From Burhinus oedicnemus (lineage: Eukaryota; Chordata; Aves; Charadriiformes; Burhinidae), in contig VFFE01006842.1 in NCBI GenBank assembly GCA_008921705.1, positions 451,394 to 515,393 of the forward strand: 64,000 bases of DNA, given 5' to 3'. Positions 22,920-61,600 of this stretch are shown one piece after another. Within the stretch, counting starts at the first letter, position 1; every line of letters begins with the position of its first letter. Made by a program: the position numbers and the translations under genes. The notes beneath the pieces are model-generated. The model was given only the letters and a program-made list of their open reading frames with translations. It was not told the DNA's origin and searched no databases.

Positions 22920-23510
22920 GGAACTATCATGGTTTCTGCTGGGATGGGACTGACTTTCTTGCTAGCAGCTGGTGTACTGCTATGTTTTGGATTTGGGATG
23001 AGAATAGTGTCAGTAGCGCACAATGTTTTTGGTTGTTGCTAAGCAGTCAAGGCCTTTTCTGCTCCTCATAGTGCCCTCAAGCAAGTAGGCTGGGGTTGCA
23101 CAAGAAGTTGGAGGGGCCACAGCCAGGACAGCTGACCCCAACTGACCAATGAGCTATTCCATACCATGTGATGTCATGCTCAGCATACAAAGATGGGAGA
23201 AGAGTGAGGAAGCGGAGGACGTTCGGAGCGATGGTGTTTGTCTTCCCAAGTAACCATTATGCGTGATGGAGCTCTGCTTCCCTGGAGATGGCTGAACACC
23301 TTCCTGCCAGTGGGAAGTAGTGAATTAATTCCTTGTTTTGCTTTCTGTGCATGGGTGGCTTTTGCTTTACTTATTAAACTGTTTTTATCTCAACCCCTGA
23401 GTTTTTTCTCACTTTTACTTTTCTGATTCTCTCCCCCATCCCAGCTGGGGGCAGTGAGGGAGGGACTGTGTGGTCCTAGTTGCTGGCTGAGGTTAAACCG
23501 CAAGAGGAAC
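22920..23510 (+). mobile_element. Solo LTR of an ERVL-like avian endogenous retrovirus, with 5-bp target duplication
   Basis: The LTR proper is 22925-23505. It is flanked by the perfect direct repeat GGAAC at 22920-22924 and 23506-23510, the 5-bp target duplication expected for ERVL-class elements. Internal order matches a common avian LTR: TCATGGTTTCTGCTGGGATG at the left, a central block at about 23118-23184 (AGCTGACC, ACTGACCAA, CATGTGATGTCATGC), a downstream region with ATTAAA at 23373-23378 as likely polyadenylation signal, and GGTTAAACC near the right edge. The canonical TG and CA termini are mutated (TA at the left, GA at the right), so it is not young. No primer binding site or internal retroviral sequence follows, so it is a solo LTR left by recombination between two LTRs. 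Orientation is plus. Confidence 0.85.
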
Positions 23511-26818: not shown

Positions 26819-26824
26819 AGATAG
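26819..26824 (+). repeat. Left target-site duplication AGATAG
   Basis: The six bases directly before the TGTGGG terminus are AGATAG, and the same six follow the CCCACA terminus at 27481-27486. A 6-bp duplication is the size known for alpharetroviral integration. It shows that the whole 26825-27480 unit entered as one piece. Confidence 0.9.
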
Positions 26825-26951
26825 TGTGGGTAGTTAGGGACAGGCGGTCGGAAGATATCGCGCTGTACGGGAAGATAGGGTCCCTCTCCTGATAGCTATT
26901 AGCGTGTAATTTATGATGTGAGCAGACGGAAGTGACGTTGTAAACCCAAGT

Positions 26952-26958
26952 TATAAAA
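26952..26958 (+). promoter_or_regulatory. TATA box of the left LTR
   Basis: TATAAAA lies about 24-30 bases upstream of the predicted start of R at 26982, the correct spacing for transcription initiation at the U3/R border. A mirror copy serves the right arm on the minus strand at 27347-27353. Confidence 0.75.
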
Positions 26959-26974
26959 CGCAGTGTTACCTTGC

Positions 26975-26980
26975 AATAAA
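26975..26980 (+). promoter_or_regulatory. AATAAA polyadenylation signal of the left LTR
   Basis: AATAAA sits just before R, about 20 bases upstream of the predicted R/U5 border, as in avian leukosis-type LTRs. The reverse copy in the right arm is TTTATT at 27325-27330 and works only on the minus strand. Confidence 0.75.
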
Positions 26981-27091
26981 CGCCATTTGCCGTCCACCAC
27001 ATTGGTGTCTGTGAGCTGATGGCCCGAGCGGCCTGGGGTTGGCCGCCGTGTCGTTCCTGAACCAGGTCGCCACGCCAACGAAGGCAACAAG

Positions 27092-27109
27092 TGGTGCCGA
27101 AACCCGGGA
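27092..27109 (+). other. Retroviral primer binding site for tRNA-Phe
   Basis: TGGTGCCGAAACCCGGGA is complementary to the 3' end of vertebrate tRNA-Phe (acceptor and T stem, including CCA). It begins two bases after the CA end of the LTR, the normal place for a PBS. Alpharetroviruses of the leukosis type use tRNA-Trp instead, so the LTR resemblance and the primer choice point to different standard groups. Minus-strand DNA synthesis would have started at this site. Confidence 0.75.
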
Positions 27110-27213
27110 AATGGGGATCGGGGATCGTCGCCTGGACGGGTGAACGGCGGCCGGAGCGGCAGGACCAGCCTGGCGGGGAGGACGCTCCCGGACCCGCAAG
27201 GAGGATGGAAGCC
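27110..27213 (+). other. Retroviral leader ending in a three-codon Gag-like start
   Basis: A GC-rich leader of about 95 bases separates the PBS from ATG at 27205-27207. The ATG is preceded by AAGGAGG and followed by GAA GCC, giving Met-Glu-Ala, the same start as alpharetroviral Gag. The leader is shorter than in leukosis viruses, so part of it may be missing. After GCC the sequence switches directly into the inverted LTR; the apparent continuation of the frame is antisense LTR and not Gag. It is a truncated remnant with no coding capacity. Confidence 0.65.
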
Positions 27214-27215
27214 CT

Positions 27216-27480
27216 TGTTGCCTTCGTTGGCGTGGCGACCTGGTTCAGGAACGACACGGCGGCCAACCCCAGGCCGCTCGGGCCATCAGCTCACAGACAC
27301 CAATGTGGTGGACGGCAAATGGCGTTTATTGCAAGGTAACACTGCGTTTTATAACTTGGGTTTACAACGTCACTTCCGTCTGCTCACATCATAAATTACA
27401 CGCTAATAGCTATCAGGAGAGGGACCCTATCTTCCCGTACAGCGCGATATCTTCCGACCGCCTGTCCCTAACTACCCACA
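27216..27480 (-). mobile_element. Right LTR arm, inverted (sense on the minus strand)
   Basis: Exact reverse complement of 26825-27089, starting TGTTGCC and ending CCCACA on the plus strand. Its TATA box and AATAAA lie on the minus strand, so its promoter points leftwards, towards the left LTR. The shared tract continues two bases into the centre (CT at 27214-27215), which equals the AG lying between U5 and the PBS in the left half. The right arm thus ends exactly where the PBS would begin. Confidence 0.88.
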
Positions 27481-27486
27481 AGATAG
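27481..27486 (+). repeat. Right target-site duplication AGATAG
   Basis: Perfect copy of 26819-26824, directly after the CCCACA terminus. Confidence 0.9.
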
Positions 27487-31927: not shown

Positions 31928-31931
31928 GGGA

Positions 31932-32011
<80 letters not shown>

Positions 32012-32086
32012 AGGAAGGAAAGGAAAGAAGGAAGGAAGGAAGGAAGGAAGGAAGGAAGGAAGGAAGGAAGGAAGGAAGGGAGGAAG
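31928..32086 (+). repeat. Compound (GAAA)n-(GGAA)n microsatellite, left half
   Basis: About 84 bases of GAAA repeats (31928-32011) change into about 70 bases of GGAA repeats (to about 32083), directly abutting a CR1 copy. It is pure purine on the plus strand. The long frames read through it (KERK- or SFFL-type repeats) are artefacts of the tetranucleotide. Confidence 0.95.
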
Positions 32087-32635
32087 TATCCCTGTATTCA
32101 GTGCTGGTGAGGCCACAGCTTGAATACTGTGTTCATTTTGGGTGCCACAGTATAGGAGGGACATTGAGGTGCTGGAGCGTGTCCAGAGAAGGGCAACAAA
32201 GCTGGTGAGGGGTCTGGAGAACATGTCTTATGAGGAGTGGCTGAAGGAATTAGGATTGTTTAGCCTGGAGAAGAGAAGGCTCAGGGGAGACCTTACCGCT
32301 CTCTAAAACTACCTGAAGGGAGGTTGTAGTGAGGCGGGAGCTGGTCTCTTCTCCCAAGTAACCAGCGATAGGACAAGAGGAAACAGGTTCAAGTTGCGCC
32401 AGGGGAGGTTTAGGCTGGACATTAGGAAAAAATTTTTCACTGCAAGAGTTCTCAAACATTGGAACAGGCTGCCCAGGGAGGTGGTTGAGTCACCATCCCT
32501 AGAAGTGTTTAAAAGTTGTGTAGATGTGGTGCTGAGAGATATAGTTTAGTGGCAGCCCTGGTAGAGTAGGGTCAATGGTTGGACTAGATGATCTTAAAGG
32601 TCTTTTCCAACCTAAACAATTCTATGATTCTATGA
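32087..32635 (+). mobile_element. CR1 LINE, 5'-truncated, inserted in a purine microsatellite
   Basis: About 550 bases of the CR1 3' end in plus orientation. It starts at TATCCCTGTATTCAGTGCTG (the reverse-transcriptase C-terminal coding region), passes through recognisable landmarks (GTGTCCAGAGAAGGGCAACA, GGAACAGGCTGCCCAGGGAG, GGTTGGACTAGATGATCTTA) and ends with the diagnostic tail ATTCTATGATTCTATGA. The coding frame is broken by stops, for example in the CTCTCTAAAACTACCTG region, so it is dead. The 5' truncation is typical of CR1 retrotransposition. Purine repeats flank both sides, so no target duplication can be defined. Confidence 0.93.
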
Positions 32636-32725
32636 TTTGAAGGACGGAAGGATGGAAGGACGGAAGGACGGAAGGAAGGAAGGAAGGAAGGAAGGAAAGA
32701 AAGAAAGAAAGAAAGAAAGAAAGAG

Positions 32726-32772
<47 letters not shown>

Positions 32773-32805
32773 AGGAAAGAAGAAAGAAAAAGAAAAAGAA
32801 AAAGC
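32636..32805 (+). repeat. Compound (GGAC/GGAA)n-(GAAA)n microsatellite, right half
   Basis: After the CR1 tail come GGAC/GGAT/GGAA units (to about 32695), then GAAA units (to about 32775), then AAGAAAAAGAAA. The order is the mirror of the left half, so CR1 probably entered the GGAA core of an existing GAAA-GGAA-GAAA array. Confidence 0.93.
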
Positions 32806-34686: not shown

Positions 34687-35297
34687 TGGACTGTATTGGG
34701 TCTGGCTGGGATGGAGTAGAATTTCCCTCACAGTGCTGGGCTTTGTATTTGCAGCTGGACCTGTGCTGGTAACACACCAATGTTTTGGCTGCTGCTGAGC
34801 AGTGCTTGCACAGCATCAGGCTGTGTCTCCAGCATCCCTCCCCCCACCTCCACAAGGCCAGTAGGCTGGAGGTGGGCAAGAGTTTGAGAGGGGACATAGC
34901 CAGAACAGCTGACCCAAACTGACCAAAGGGATATTCCGTACCATATGACATCATGCCCAGCAACAAAAGCTAAGAGAAAGGGAGGGGGAGTGGGAGGGGA
35001 GAGAAGTGGGGGCATTTGTTATTAAGGTGTTTGCCTTCCAAAGCAACCACTACACATATGGAGGTCCTGCTTCCCAGGAACTAGTTGGTCATCACCTGCT
35101 GATGGGAAGTAGAGAACAAGTCTTCATGTTTTCCTTTGGTTCTGTGTATCGCCAATGCTTTTCTTTATTAAACTGCCTTTATCTCAACCCGTGAGTTTTT
35201 AATCTTATTTTCTCCCCCTGTCCCACAGAGGACAAGGAGTGAGGGAGCAGCTTGGTGGGCACCTGGCAGCCAGCCGAGGTCAACCCTCCACAAGGAC
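34687..35297 (+). mobile_element. Solo LTR, second ERVL-like copy
   Basis: The LTR is 34692-35292, beginning TGTATTGGGTCTGGCTGGGA and ending AACCCTCCACA, so both TG and CA termini are preserved. Flanking bases are TGGAC (34687-34691) and AGGAC (35293-35297), a 5-bp target duplication with one change. The central block (34896-34957: GACAGCTGACCCAAACTGACC, then ATTCCGTACCATATGACATC) is shared with the LTR at 22925. ATTAAA at 35167-35172 is the likely polyadenylation signal. No internal viral sequence is attached, so it is a solo LTR in plus orientation. The open frames inside it on both strands are not genes. Confidence 0.85.
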
Positions 35298-57754: not shown

Positions 57755-58632
57755 TCATAGAATCATAGAATCATAGAATACCAGGTTGGAAGGGACCTCA
57801 AGGGTCATCTGGTCCAACCTTTCCTGGCAAAAGTACAGTCTAGACAAGATGGCCCAGAACCCTGTCCAGCTGAATCGTAAAAGTGCCCAGTGATGGGGAA
57901 TCCACCGCTTCCCTGGGGAGATTATTCCAATGGCTGATTGTTCTCATTGTGAAAAACTTTCTTCTTGTGTCCAATTGGAATCTCCTCAACAGTAACTTGT
58001 ACCCATAATCCCTCACCTTTTCCATGTCACTCCTTGTAAAAAGGGAGTCTCCATCTTCTTTGTAGCCACCCTTTAAATACTGAATCATGGTGATAAGGTC
58101 TCCCCTAAGCCTTCTTTTCTCAAGGCTGAACAAACCCAATTTTCTCAGCCTTTCCTCATATGGCAGGCTTCCCAGTCCTTTGATCGTCTTGGTGGCCTTT
58201 CTCTGGACCCTCTCCAGCCTGTCCACATCTTTTTTGTGTATCAGGGACCAAAACTGAACACAGTATTCCAGGTGTGGCCTGACAAGCACTGAGCAGAGTG
58301 GGATAATGACTTCTTTGTCTCTGCTGGTGATGCCCTTGTTGATGCAGCCCAGCATTCTGCTGGCTTGCTTTGCCACTGCAGCACACTGTTCACTCATATT
58401 GAGCTTGTTGTCCACCAGGACCCCCAGGTCCCTTTCCAGAGGGCTGCTCTCCAGCCAGGTAGATCCCAGTCTGTGTTGCTCTCCTGGATTATGTTTTCCC
58501 AGAGGTAAGACGTTACACTTGTCCTTGCTGAACTTCTTAAGGTACTTGTTAGCCCACCCTTCCAGCCTATCCAGGTGTTCAAGCAGTGTGGCTCTCCCTT
58601 CTGAAGTGTTCACTTCCCCACTCAGTTTGAGT
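57755..58632 (-). mobile_element. CR1 LINE, 5'-truncated, well preserved
   Basis: Minus-strand CR1 of about 880 bases. On the plus strand it starts with three tail units TCATAGAA (57755-57778), then CCAGGTTGGAAGGGACCTCA and GGTCATCTGGTCCAACC, the standard 3' untranslated end. The coding part follows to about 58632, where similarity stops inside the reverse-transcriptase gene. The preserved frame and the intact tail make it the youngest-looking CR1 in the window, although it cannot move by itself because the 5' half of ORF2 and all of ORF1 are missing. No clear target duplication is seen. Confidence 0.93.
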
Positions 58633-58643
58633 TGCAGTTTCAT
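57840..58643 (-). CDS. C-terminal part of CR1 reverse transcriptase (ORF2), partial
   Basis: 267 open codons ending at a natural stop. Residues about 6-50 (KLSGEVNTSEGRATLLEHLD ... KFSKDKCNVLPLGK) correspond to the thumb region that follows the catalytic palm of LINE reverse transcriptases. The rest is the CR1 ORF2 C-terminal region, with LVRPHLEYCVQFW at about 125-137, RKATKTIKGL, and HWNNLPREAVDSPSLGTF near the end. The endonuclease and the palm with its catalytic aspartates are absent, so the product would have no polymerase activity. In a full element this protein primes reverse transcription of its own RNA at the tail repeats. The first few residues (MKLQ) probably come from flanking DNA at the truncation point. 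Frames on the opposite strand and in other phases are shadows. It is a transposon relic and not a host gene. Confidence 0.8.
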   Translation of the reverse strand: MKLQLKLSGEVNTSEGRATLLEHLDRLEGWANKYLKKFSKDKCNVLPLGKHNPGEQHRLGSTWLESSPLERDLGVLVDNKLNMSEQCAAVAKQASRMLGCINKGITSRDKEVIIPLCSVLVRPHLEYCVQFWSLIHKKDVDRLERVQRKATKTIKGLGSLPYEERLRKLGLFSLEKRRLRGDLITMIQYLKGGYKEDGDSLFTRSDMEKVRDYGYKLLLRRFQLDTRRKFFTMRTISHWNNLPREAVDSPSLGTFTIQLDRVLGHLV

Positions 58644-61600
58644 ATTGCTTTATGCATTACAAAATGATTTTAACATGTAACAAATAATTAGCAAAAATAT
58701 CACTAGTGAAGGAGGAAAGCCTGTTGAATATCAGTTCACATGTACAACAAAGATTCTGGATTTCCCCCTGATCTGACATATTTTGGAAAACTACCAGAGT
58801 GCTATTGAATTTTACACAGAACCTCAAATTGTCTAAGGCTTGAAAAATGGGTGGGCTGTGCTAAAGATATGTACAGAAGAGCGATGAATTTGCATAACTG
58901 GTATTTGCATATTTCCAAGGAGGGTGATACATACATAATTCAGGAATAACGCAGAAGTACTTTCTTGTGCACTTAATAACGTACTCACACTGACTCCTCC
59001 ACCTACATGCAAATGTGGGTATGGATGTATTTGTCGCAGGACCATTTGAAACTTTAGTGAAATAGATTCTTTCCTTCTTCCTTTCTTTAAACAAAAATAG
59101 ATTATTTTGATAGTACCAGGAGCCATGCTGAAGCTTGAAGAATGAGAAGTCTGTCTGCTTGCTGATGGCTGAATTGAAAATTGCACCAGGAAAACTTGTT
59201 GCTCACAGAGCTACCCTTTTTTTTTTCCAGCCTGCTGCATTACACATACCCTGGATTGTCTAAGGAAAAGACCGAACAGATCTATTCCGTATCCTCGCTG
59301 CATTTGAAATAGAATTTCACCAGTGTGTTACTATTTGAACAGATATGGTATAATCAATTACTCCTCTCCTCTTCCCAAAAGAAGAAAAAAAATGCAGTAT
59401 TAGTTAACACATAGCACAGCAGCTCCAACTAATATTATATTTAGCTTGCTGCTTGTTTCTTAATTATGATTACTGTTCAGCACATTTCCTTAACAGTTCC
59501 TTGGGCCATCGGATATGCAATGCAATCCTTCTTGTAGCATCTGCCCATGTCACACAAAGCCCCGTCTCCTTCTGTACTCCTGCCTTTTAATTAATAATGG
59601 GACTGCAGTAAGTAAAAAGAATCAGTGGAGCATTTCCTAGCTAGCAGTGAGACTCTTCCTGACCTAATGCTCATAGACTTGTTTGCGTCCTTGTCCCTCC
59701 TGATGCTCTGCTCGTGGTAGGCTGCATATGGCGCAGATGTTTCTGTCATGCTATTACATGGCTATTTTCAACCTGTTTCTCAGAACAGATGTTCCCACGT
59801 GTGTTCTCCCTCCTTTCTCTGCTGACACACTCTCTGTACAAACAGCAGTGTGCATTTCTGCAGTCCTGGTTTGTGGAGAGAATGAAAATCAATACCAGTG
59901 ACAGTATTTTCCTTTCCAGGCTTCTCTGTAATGGGGCATGTGAGCCTGGTCTTCTTTAAGTCTTTCTCTCACCCCTAACAAGATGCTTCAGCTCTTGATT
60001 TGTCTGTTTTTAACCCATTTGCTTCATTGTATGGGACAGTATTTGGAAGTGCCATGTGTTTTGTAATACAGAAAGCTATCTCCTTCGATGTGCCGTCTAG
60101 TGGTTGTTCCTTCTTTCTAACCACAAATGGCAGTGTAAATTCAACAGTATGTATTCTGGGATTTACTCTAAAGGGAGAAGCAGCACACGAATAAAATCCC
60201 ATCTCCTGCCATCTGTCTCCTGCATATTTCTTTACAGTCCAAGTGCATTATATTTGAGCCCAAATGCTTCAGTATTGGCAGCAGCGGCCAGTTATGGTAA
60301 GAAATCCCCCATGAGTTTAAATACATAAAGAAGGTGACATATGGACAAAATACACCAGGGATGGTAAGGGCTGGAGTTTTATTTCTAATGTGCTGGAAGT
60401 CTCTATATCTCCTGAACAATGGCATTGCTGGTTAGTAACAACATTGATGTATTTTGCACATTACCTTAGTCCCGTAGCCCTACAGCTAAGAGCAAGTGGG
60501 AAAAATAAGAACAAGTGGAGAAAATGTAAGTAAGGAAGGAAAAGTAAACCAAACCTCACAGTGGATTAGGTTCCAGATCCTCCTGAGAACAATTAATTAG
60601 GAGTGGACATGGACAAATTGATTTTCTTTCACTGAAGAGGGATGGAGGACATTCACTTTCAAATCAGGCTTGTTGCTCCTGAAATGGTGACAGTGACCAA
60701 TGTATCACTTAGAAATGACATGACTGTACCTTCCGTCTTGGTCATTTGTTTGGAAGATATTGTTTTCCTGTGTTGGGGTATGCTGTTTTCTAACATATAA
60801 AGAGTTTTAGAAACTGGAGATTGGTCAGTCTTTTGTCATGTCATTTCTTAGCATGTAGGAACATTCAACCATACAATGCAGCTGTGAGGAATGAGTTAAA
60901 TTAGAAACTCAACACATATAATTTAATTAATCAATATTTTCATTCTTTGGGCATTGTCCTCCAAGAATAAAAATCCTGCTTCTTGTATTAAAAGCATTTT
61001 GTACTACAACCAGGCTGATTGTTGGTGTAAACAAATGAAGTACAGCAGATGACGAGTGGACTTTTTAGTGACAAATAGTGAATTTGGTCCTATCATAAGA
61101 AAATACACTGGAAAAAAAAAAAGTTGGTAACTGCTAACACATGTGAGATATTAGTTTACCTATAAACATGCACTGAAGCAATTCATAGTGTAAATAAGAT
61201 AAGGAACTGTAGGGAAGTCACAAGGGGGAGGACTGGTTTGCTCTACTTCAGATAACTAAAAGGGAGAAATATAACTATGTTGTCTGATGCTTTCCTTAGT
61301 TGATGCACAAAAAAATCAGTCATCTACCCCAGGGGTAGTTCAGGAACTCATTTGACTTTTTGATGACAAGACGAACTGACCTGCTTTGAATGTTAGATAT
61401 CTAAAGTGAGATGAAATAAATCACATCTATAATTTTGCCTTTCTGTTTTGGAGTTTAGTAGGCTGACAAACTTGGCCAACTAGGCCAAAAATTCAAAAAT
61501 TGTCAAACGAGGTGTGACTCATCTCTTTTAACTTAAACTTTCTAAAAGTCTAGCATCTAAGCTTGTCTCCTGCACAGTCAGAGGAGGAAGAGCAGTTTGT

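What the first reader, a model, noticed from the sequence alone, without database searches (positions are those of the whole stretch)
26819..27486. Perfect palindromic LTR element inserted as one unit with a 6-bp target duplication
The sequence shows a 265-bp LTR, a 122-base centre with a primer binding site and leader, and an exact reverse-complement LTR, all between two copies of AGATAG. A normal provirus has LTRs in direct orientation and a recombined one leaves a single LTR; neither gives this. The flawless target duplication at the outer borders means the inverted structure existed before or during integration and did not arise by later rearrangement. This is the strongest candidate here for something undescribed: either a single aberrant reverse-transcription product that integrated, or a non-autonomous palindromic element family moved by a related retrovirus.
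Basis: partly seen in the sequence, partly recalled or inferred. Interest (0 to 1): 0.9.

Follow-up and report, generated by a model that had tools for sequence, protein, structure and literature searches.

The report
Palindromic mini-provirus with two U3 ends
A chromosome, likely a bird's, carries a 656-base retroviral insertion made of two identical long terminal repeats facing each other around a short viral leader; it is likely a one-off misfire in which two half-made viral DNA strands joined at five matching bases and would then have been inserted by the virus's own integrase, which makes it a readable fossil of an aberrant route.

Summary
Window 26825-27480 (656 bp) is two exact 267-bp inverted arms around a 122-base centre, between two copies of AGATAG. 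Each arm is a 265-bp TG...CA LTR plus AG, the two bases before the primer-binding site. Both outer borders are U3 ends. The centre is PBS, leader and nine bases of a likely gag. Relatives exist: 39 predicted proteins. By string match, 12 of 39 read PBS/leader beside the LTR and 8 of 39 reach the gag start; all 8 run on into gag, none into an inverted LTR. Two reading frames of relatives together put CTTGT in normal gag exactly where the right arm begins CTTGT: a 5-base microhomology flush with the U5 terminus. I favour an aberrant reverse-transcription product: two U3-started plus strands overlapping by five bases, copied into a short DNA with two U3 ends, then inserted by integrase. The mobile-family reading has no support, but the window's own genome could not be searched, so copy number is untested.

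The parts
26819..26824 (+). left copy of the 6-bp target duplication AGATAG
26825..27089 (+). left LTR, 265 bp, TG...CA, U3 end outward
   Evidence: 12 of 39 relatives show the same U3 edge followed by other residues, two of them by only one or two
26952..26957 (+). TATA box of left LTR (mirror copy 27348-27353 on - strand)
   Evidence: mirror position by symmetry
26975..26980 (+). AATAAA signal of left LTR (mirror copy 27325-27330 on - strand)
27090..27091 (+). AG between LTR and PBS, the dinucleotide that integrase would normally remove from the U5 end
   Evidence: role from general knowledge
27092..27109 (+). 18-nt primer-binding site; matches the 3' end of tRNA-Phe as recalled
   Evidence: sequence; tRNA identity recalled, not from a call
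27110..27204 (+). retroviral leader
   Evidence: PBS/leader strings adjoin the LTR in the ordinary orientation in 12 of 39 relatives
27205..27213 (+). likely gag start, three codons (M-E-A)
   Evidence: 8 of 39 relatives continue in gag from here
27214..27218 (+). CTTGT, 5-nt microhomology between gag of relatives and the U5 terminus; the join
   Evidence: inferred from back-translation of relatives
27214..27215 (-). AG of the right arm, retained
   Evidence: because of the microhomology it may come from gag instead
27216..27480 (-). right LTR, 265 bp, inverted, U3 end outward
   Evidence: identical to the left LTR
27481..27486 (+). right copy of the 6-bp target duplication AGATAG

Best explanation
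This is a 656-bp palindromic insertion with a U3 end at each border inside a perfect 6-bp duplication, and it was likely made by reverse transcriptase when two plus-strand viral DNAs, both started at U3, paired through a 5-base match at their 3' ends and primed each other. Shown: exact 267-bp arms, U3 outward on both sides, the AG before the PBS present on both arms, PBS and leader in the centre, and the AGATAG duplication. Deduced from relatives: normal gag carries CTTGT at the join, the same five bases that complement the U5 terminus. Inferred: strand 1 had passed U3-R-U5-PBS-leader and stopped at gag base 14 (...CTTGT-3'). Strand 2 was a strong-stop plus strand ending at the U5 terminus (...ACAAG-3') without a copied PBS. 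Mutual extension gives a blunt linear DNA whose two ends are both exact U3 termini. Integrase would process both and insert them together.
For: Exact arms and duplication. Exact U3 termini on both sides follow if both strands began at the polypurine-tract primer (general knowledge). The right arm stops flush with the U5 terminus just before the PBS. 7 of 7 relatives that read the gag start in one antisense frame have the same residues, and P0018, the only one in a second frame, combined with them forces CTTGT at the join and a different base after it. CTTGT occurs at 1 of 123 positions from PBS to the join, that one being the join. Among joins to the exact U5 terminus, 5 or more matching bases occur in 1 of 105 (the observed one), and among joins in the neighbouring 132 bases in 122 of 13860. 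RSV integrase makes 6-bp duplications, and the concerted-integration assay described uses U3-end oligonucleotides, wild-type or a gain-of-function U3 variant (PMC10209032, passages seen). None of the 8 relatives (of 39) that reach the gag start shows the palindromic junction.
Against: The microhomology is deduced from back-translated proteins of relatives, not from this host's own provirus; the first frame alone leaves 192 possible ten-base sequences, so it rests on P0018 sharing those bases with the other seven. No ordinary provirus of this host was available. The model needs a strong-stop strand without a copied PBS, or an unpaired PBS tail on the acceptor. Folding gave no pre-pairing of the two matching segments (probability at most 0.014 as DNA, 0.0 as RNA). 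Whether this virus's integrase uses two U3 ends is extrapolated from RSV, partly from a changed U3 end.
Confidence: 0.53

Rival explanations
1. Snap-back: one plus strand folded back so that its own 3' CTTGT primed on its own ACAAG, 122 bases upstream, making an LTR hairpin that was later opened into a linear duplex.
For: Same microhomology and same arms; needs one molecule only; identical arms come for free.
Against: The first product has one duplex end and a closed loop, whereas concerted integration needs two ends; an extra step is required. Folding of U5 to gag start gave no such pairing.
Confidence: 0.17
2. Host microhomology-mediated end joining of two viral DNA fragments before integration.
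For: A short terminal microhomology is typical of this repair (for the match; the rest general knowledge).
Against: Needs a free double-stranded LTR-only fragment with an exact U3 end; the usual right-end LTR continues into the rest of the genome.
Confidence: 0.12
3. Autointegration: the processed U5 CA end of one viral DNA attacked the gag start of the same or another viral DNA, and the remainder of the genome was lost.
For: The junction can be read as gag ...CT joined directly to TGTTGCC, the processed end; P0013 shows pol followed by an antisense LTR, though a nested insertion explains that as well.
Against: Needs no microhomology, yet 5 nt are present (1 of 105 joins); does not explain loss of everything beyond U3 with an exact U3 end.
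Confidence: 0.08
4. A mobile palindromic non-autonomous family trafficked by a related retrovirus.
For: Exact unit boundaries and duplication; identical arms fit a recent insertion (about 2-4 My upper bound at assumed rates).
Against: None of the 8 of 39 relatives that reach the gag start shows the junction, and its exact strings occur in 0 of 39; a transcript has no sense R downstream, so first-strand transfer in cis would fail (inference).
Confidence: 0.07
5. Assembly artefact or later rearrangement of an ordinary provirus.
For: Palindromes are prone to misassembly (general knowledge).
Against: Symmetry stops exactly at the LTR edges, flanks differ, and a perfect 6-bp duplication lies outside.
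Confidence: 0.03

Closest known systems
Ordinary endogenous provirus of an avian class II (alpharetrovirus-like, label from recalled resemblance) family
   Same: LTR with TG...CA, PBS 2 nt after the LTR, 6-bp duplication, leader and likely gag start
   Different: LTRs face each other, nearly all internal sequence is missing, and both borders are U3
Solo LTR
   Same: Short insertion bounded by a 6-bp duplication
   Different: Two LTRs in inverted order with PBS and leader between
Defective retroviral DNA described by Olsen and Swanstrom 1985 (recalled, not held)
   Same: As recalled, a reverse-transcription route to defective, inverted viral DNA
   Different: Here the product lies in a chromosome with an exact target duplication; the paper could not be read, so the overlap is not established
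Autointegration products (general knowledge)
   Same: An LTR end joined to internal viral sequence in inverted order
   Different: Usually circular with the rest of the genome retained; here a 5-nt microhomology and two U3 ends
DIRS-type elements with inverted terminal repeats (recalled)
   Same: Inverted terminal repeats
   Different: DIRS elements use a tyrosine recombinase and leave no duplication (recalled); this has a 6-bp duplication and retroviral LTRs

Membership tests
Avian class II / alpharetrovirus-like ERV | 6-bp target duplication | tested here: met
   RSV makes 6 bp (PMC10209032, passage)
Avian class II / alpharetrovirus-like ERV | TG...CA LTR followed by a tRNA primer-binding site | tested here: met
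   for position and letters; tRNA-Phe identity recalled
Avian class II / alpharetrovirus-like ERV | gag/pol phylogeny | not tested
   only three gag codons are present; own-genome search unanswered
Ordinary provirus | direct LTRs, U3 at one border and U5 at the other | tested here: not met
   U3 at both borders
Solo LTR | single LTR between duplications | tested here: not met
Palindromic mobile family | several copies with one internal junction and different duplications | tested here: inconclusive
   none of the 8 of 39 relatives that reach the gag start; the genome search unanswered in 19 tries
DIRS-type element | no target duplication, tyrosine recombinase (both recalled) | tested here: not met
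   duplication present; longest stop-to-stop frame over the element is 157 aa
Foldback DNA transposon or MITE | inverted repeats not derived from LTRs | tested here: not met
   arms are LTRs adjoining PBS/leader in 12 of 39 relatives

The most novel reading that the evidence does not exclude
Retroviral reverse transcription has a by-pass route: two U3-started plus strands that overlap by a few bases prime each other into a short palindromic DNA with two U3 ends, which integrase inserts as well as normal viral DNA. Such insertions would carry two promoters facing each other and make self-complementary LTR RNA, a ready source of antisense against their own family.
Probability: 0.15. Interest if true: 0.75.

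Novelty: new variant of a known kind. Interest (0 to 1): 0.55.

Why it matters
It looks like a dead-end reverse-transcription intermediate caught in a chromosome, with the join readable to the base. It bears on how plus-strand DNAs switch template and on whether integrase inserts a unit with two U3 ends in a living cell. If such elements recur, they would be convergent-promoter insertions able to make double-stranded LTR RNA, and they could be found by a simple screen of assemblies.

Tried and rejected
DNA relatives: no exact match of a 27-base LTR/PBS pattern in viral contigs; the CR1 reading, A2 and P0009 as queries in viral contigs gave no confirmed locus, nor did the minus-frame reading in genome contigs or the left half of the element in phage records. 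No Rfam family at gathering score and no tRNA in the window. Folding did not support the idea that U5 and gag start pair in the leader.

Literature: ten searches were answered. Searches found no paper. Searches listed only 15 of 1,089, 10 of 45, 8 of 41 and 12 of 35 papers. No listed title describes a palindromic LTR provirus. Listings only, except passages of PMC10209032 and PMC5618025; a term search of PMC10820513 returned no passage.

Considered and rejected: post-integration inversion (U3 at both borders against one duplication), assembly fold-back (flanks differ), DIRS-type element, and foldback transposon.

Full report
What is there. Window 26825-27480 is a 656-bp insertion between two copies of AGATAG. 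Its arms, 26825-27091 and 27214-27480, are exact reverse complements over 267 bp, with a 122-base centre between them (one search gives 274 nt at 99%). Each arm is a 265-bp LTR that begins TGTGGG and ends GCAACA, followed by AG, the two bases between LTR and PBS. The LTR has TATAAA at 26952 and AATAAA at 26975. The centre begins with an 18-base PBS (tRNA-Phe as recalled) and ends with an ATG and two more codons. The flanks, 499 and 500 bases, share nothing significant (best E 0.36), so the symmetry belongs to the insertion alone.

Host and family. A CR1-like LINE reading at 57840-58649 on the minus strand (CR1 identity recalled, no Pfam match) suggests a bird. Three protein searches returned 39 distinct predicted proteins: 8 scored of 31 candidates, 12 of 117 and 37 of 8000, 19 of them new. 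On reading, most are antisense readings of the same LTR family. Two have a named source, both birds: Sarcoramphus papa (P0006; lineage) and Aquila chrysaetos (P0020). By string match, 12 of 39 contain PBS/leader beside the LTR in the ordinary orientation, 8 of 39 reach the gag start, and 12 of 39 show the U3 edge followed by other residues (two of these by only one or two).

Is it a family? The exact strings expected of the palindromic junctions occur in 0 of 39. The informative number is smaller: only the 8 that reach the gag start could show the left-hand side of the join, and all 8 continue in gag. The searches see only frames that happened to be predicted as proteins, only lengths of 0.55 to 1.75 times the query, and only the 8000 candidates that share most words. 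This is a weak test for a family. The decisive test, the window's own genome, did not complete in 19 tries.

The join. Seven of seven relatives that read the gag start in one antisense frame share the same residues there; alone they leave 192 possible ten-base sequences. One relative, P0018, reads it in a second frame. If these relatives share their bases at this point, the two frames together force CTTGT at the join and a different base after it. The window reads CTTGT too, and from there follows the right LTR. The same five bases complement the last five bases of U5 before the PBS. The match is thus five bases long and flush with the U5 terminus. From PBS to the join, CTTGT occurs at 1 of 123 positions, which is the join. 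Among joins to the exact U5 terminus, 5 or more matching bases occur in 1 of 105 cases, the observed one; among joins in the neighbouring 132 bases, in 122 of 13860 (using an 8-base inferred continuation of gag).

Mechanism. Both borders are U3 ends. Plus strands of retroviruses begin exactly at U3 because they are primed at the polypurine tract (general knowledge). Two such strands, one reaching gag base 14 and one ending at the U5 terminus, would overlap by CTTGT/ACAAG at their 3' ends. Extension of each on the other gives exactly this molecule: double-stranded, U3 at both ends, PBS and leader once, AG on both arms. Integrase would then trim and insert both ends. RSV integrase gives 6-bp duplications, and the concerted-integration assay described uses U3-end oligonucleotides, wild-type or a gain-of-function variant (PMC10209032, passages seen), so two U3 ends are a workable pair in vitro. 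The pairing, the priming and the use of two U3 ends by this virus are inferred. Folding of U5 to gag start did not show the two segments paired beforehand (at most 0.014 as DNA, 0.0 as RNA).

Rivals. A snap-back of one strand gives the same letters but leaves one closed end. Host end joining needs an LTR-only duplex. Autointegration does not need the microhomology and does not explain the loss of everything beyond U3; P0013, pol followed by an antisense LTR, could be an autointegrant or a nested insertion. A mobile family has no copy in the material searched and no obvious way to copy itself, since its transcript would have no downstream R (inference). Assembly error is unlikely with different flanks and a perfect duplication.

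Age. With no difference between the 267-bp arms, assumed rates of 1.5 to 3 per 1000 million years per site give 95% upper bounds of 3.75 to 1.87 million years (rates recalled). Arm-to-arm gene conversion could make it look younger.

Limits. The host genome could not be searched. No ordinary provirus from the same host was seen. The paper that I recall as the nearest precedent (Olsen and Swanstrom 1985) is not held. The ten answered literature searches listed no title that describes such an integrated element; they cover open-licence papers only, several listings were capped, and beyond listings I saw only passages of PMC10209032 and PMC5618025.

Verdict. The feature is real and unusual. It is most likely a one-off aberrant reverse-transcription product that integrated with two U3 ends: a new variant of a known kind, interest 0.55.

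Noticed in passing
P0013, a relative outside the window: A reverse-transcriptase fragment (PF00078, E 0.00093, below the curated cut-off) runs straight into an antisense LTR of this family at its U5 end: a nested insertion or an autointegrant.
   Followed up: partly
P0020, Aquila chrysaetos: A gene model named ubiquitin carboxyl-terminal hydrolase 36 has antisense gag, leader and part of the LTR of a related provirus fused ahead of its UCH domain, either an LTR-driven transcript or a mis-annotation.
   Followed up: no
window 57755-58649, minus strand: CR1-like LINE reading with TCATAGAA repeated about three times beside it; a related stretch lies at 32098-32295 (74%).
   Followed up: no
window 31930-32077 and 32639-32801: GAAA-rich tandem arrays.
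   Followed up: no
window 23081-23406 and 34857-35200: Unidentified repeat pair, 71% identical.
   Followed up: no
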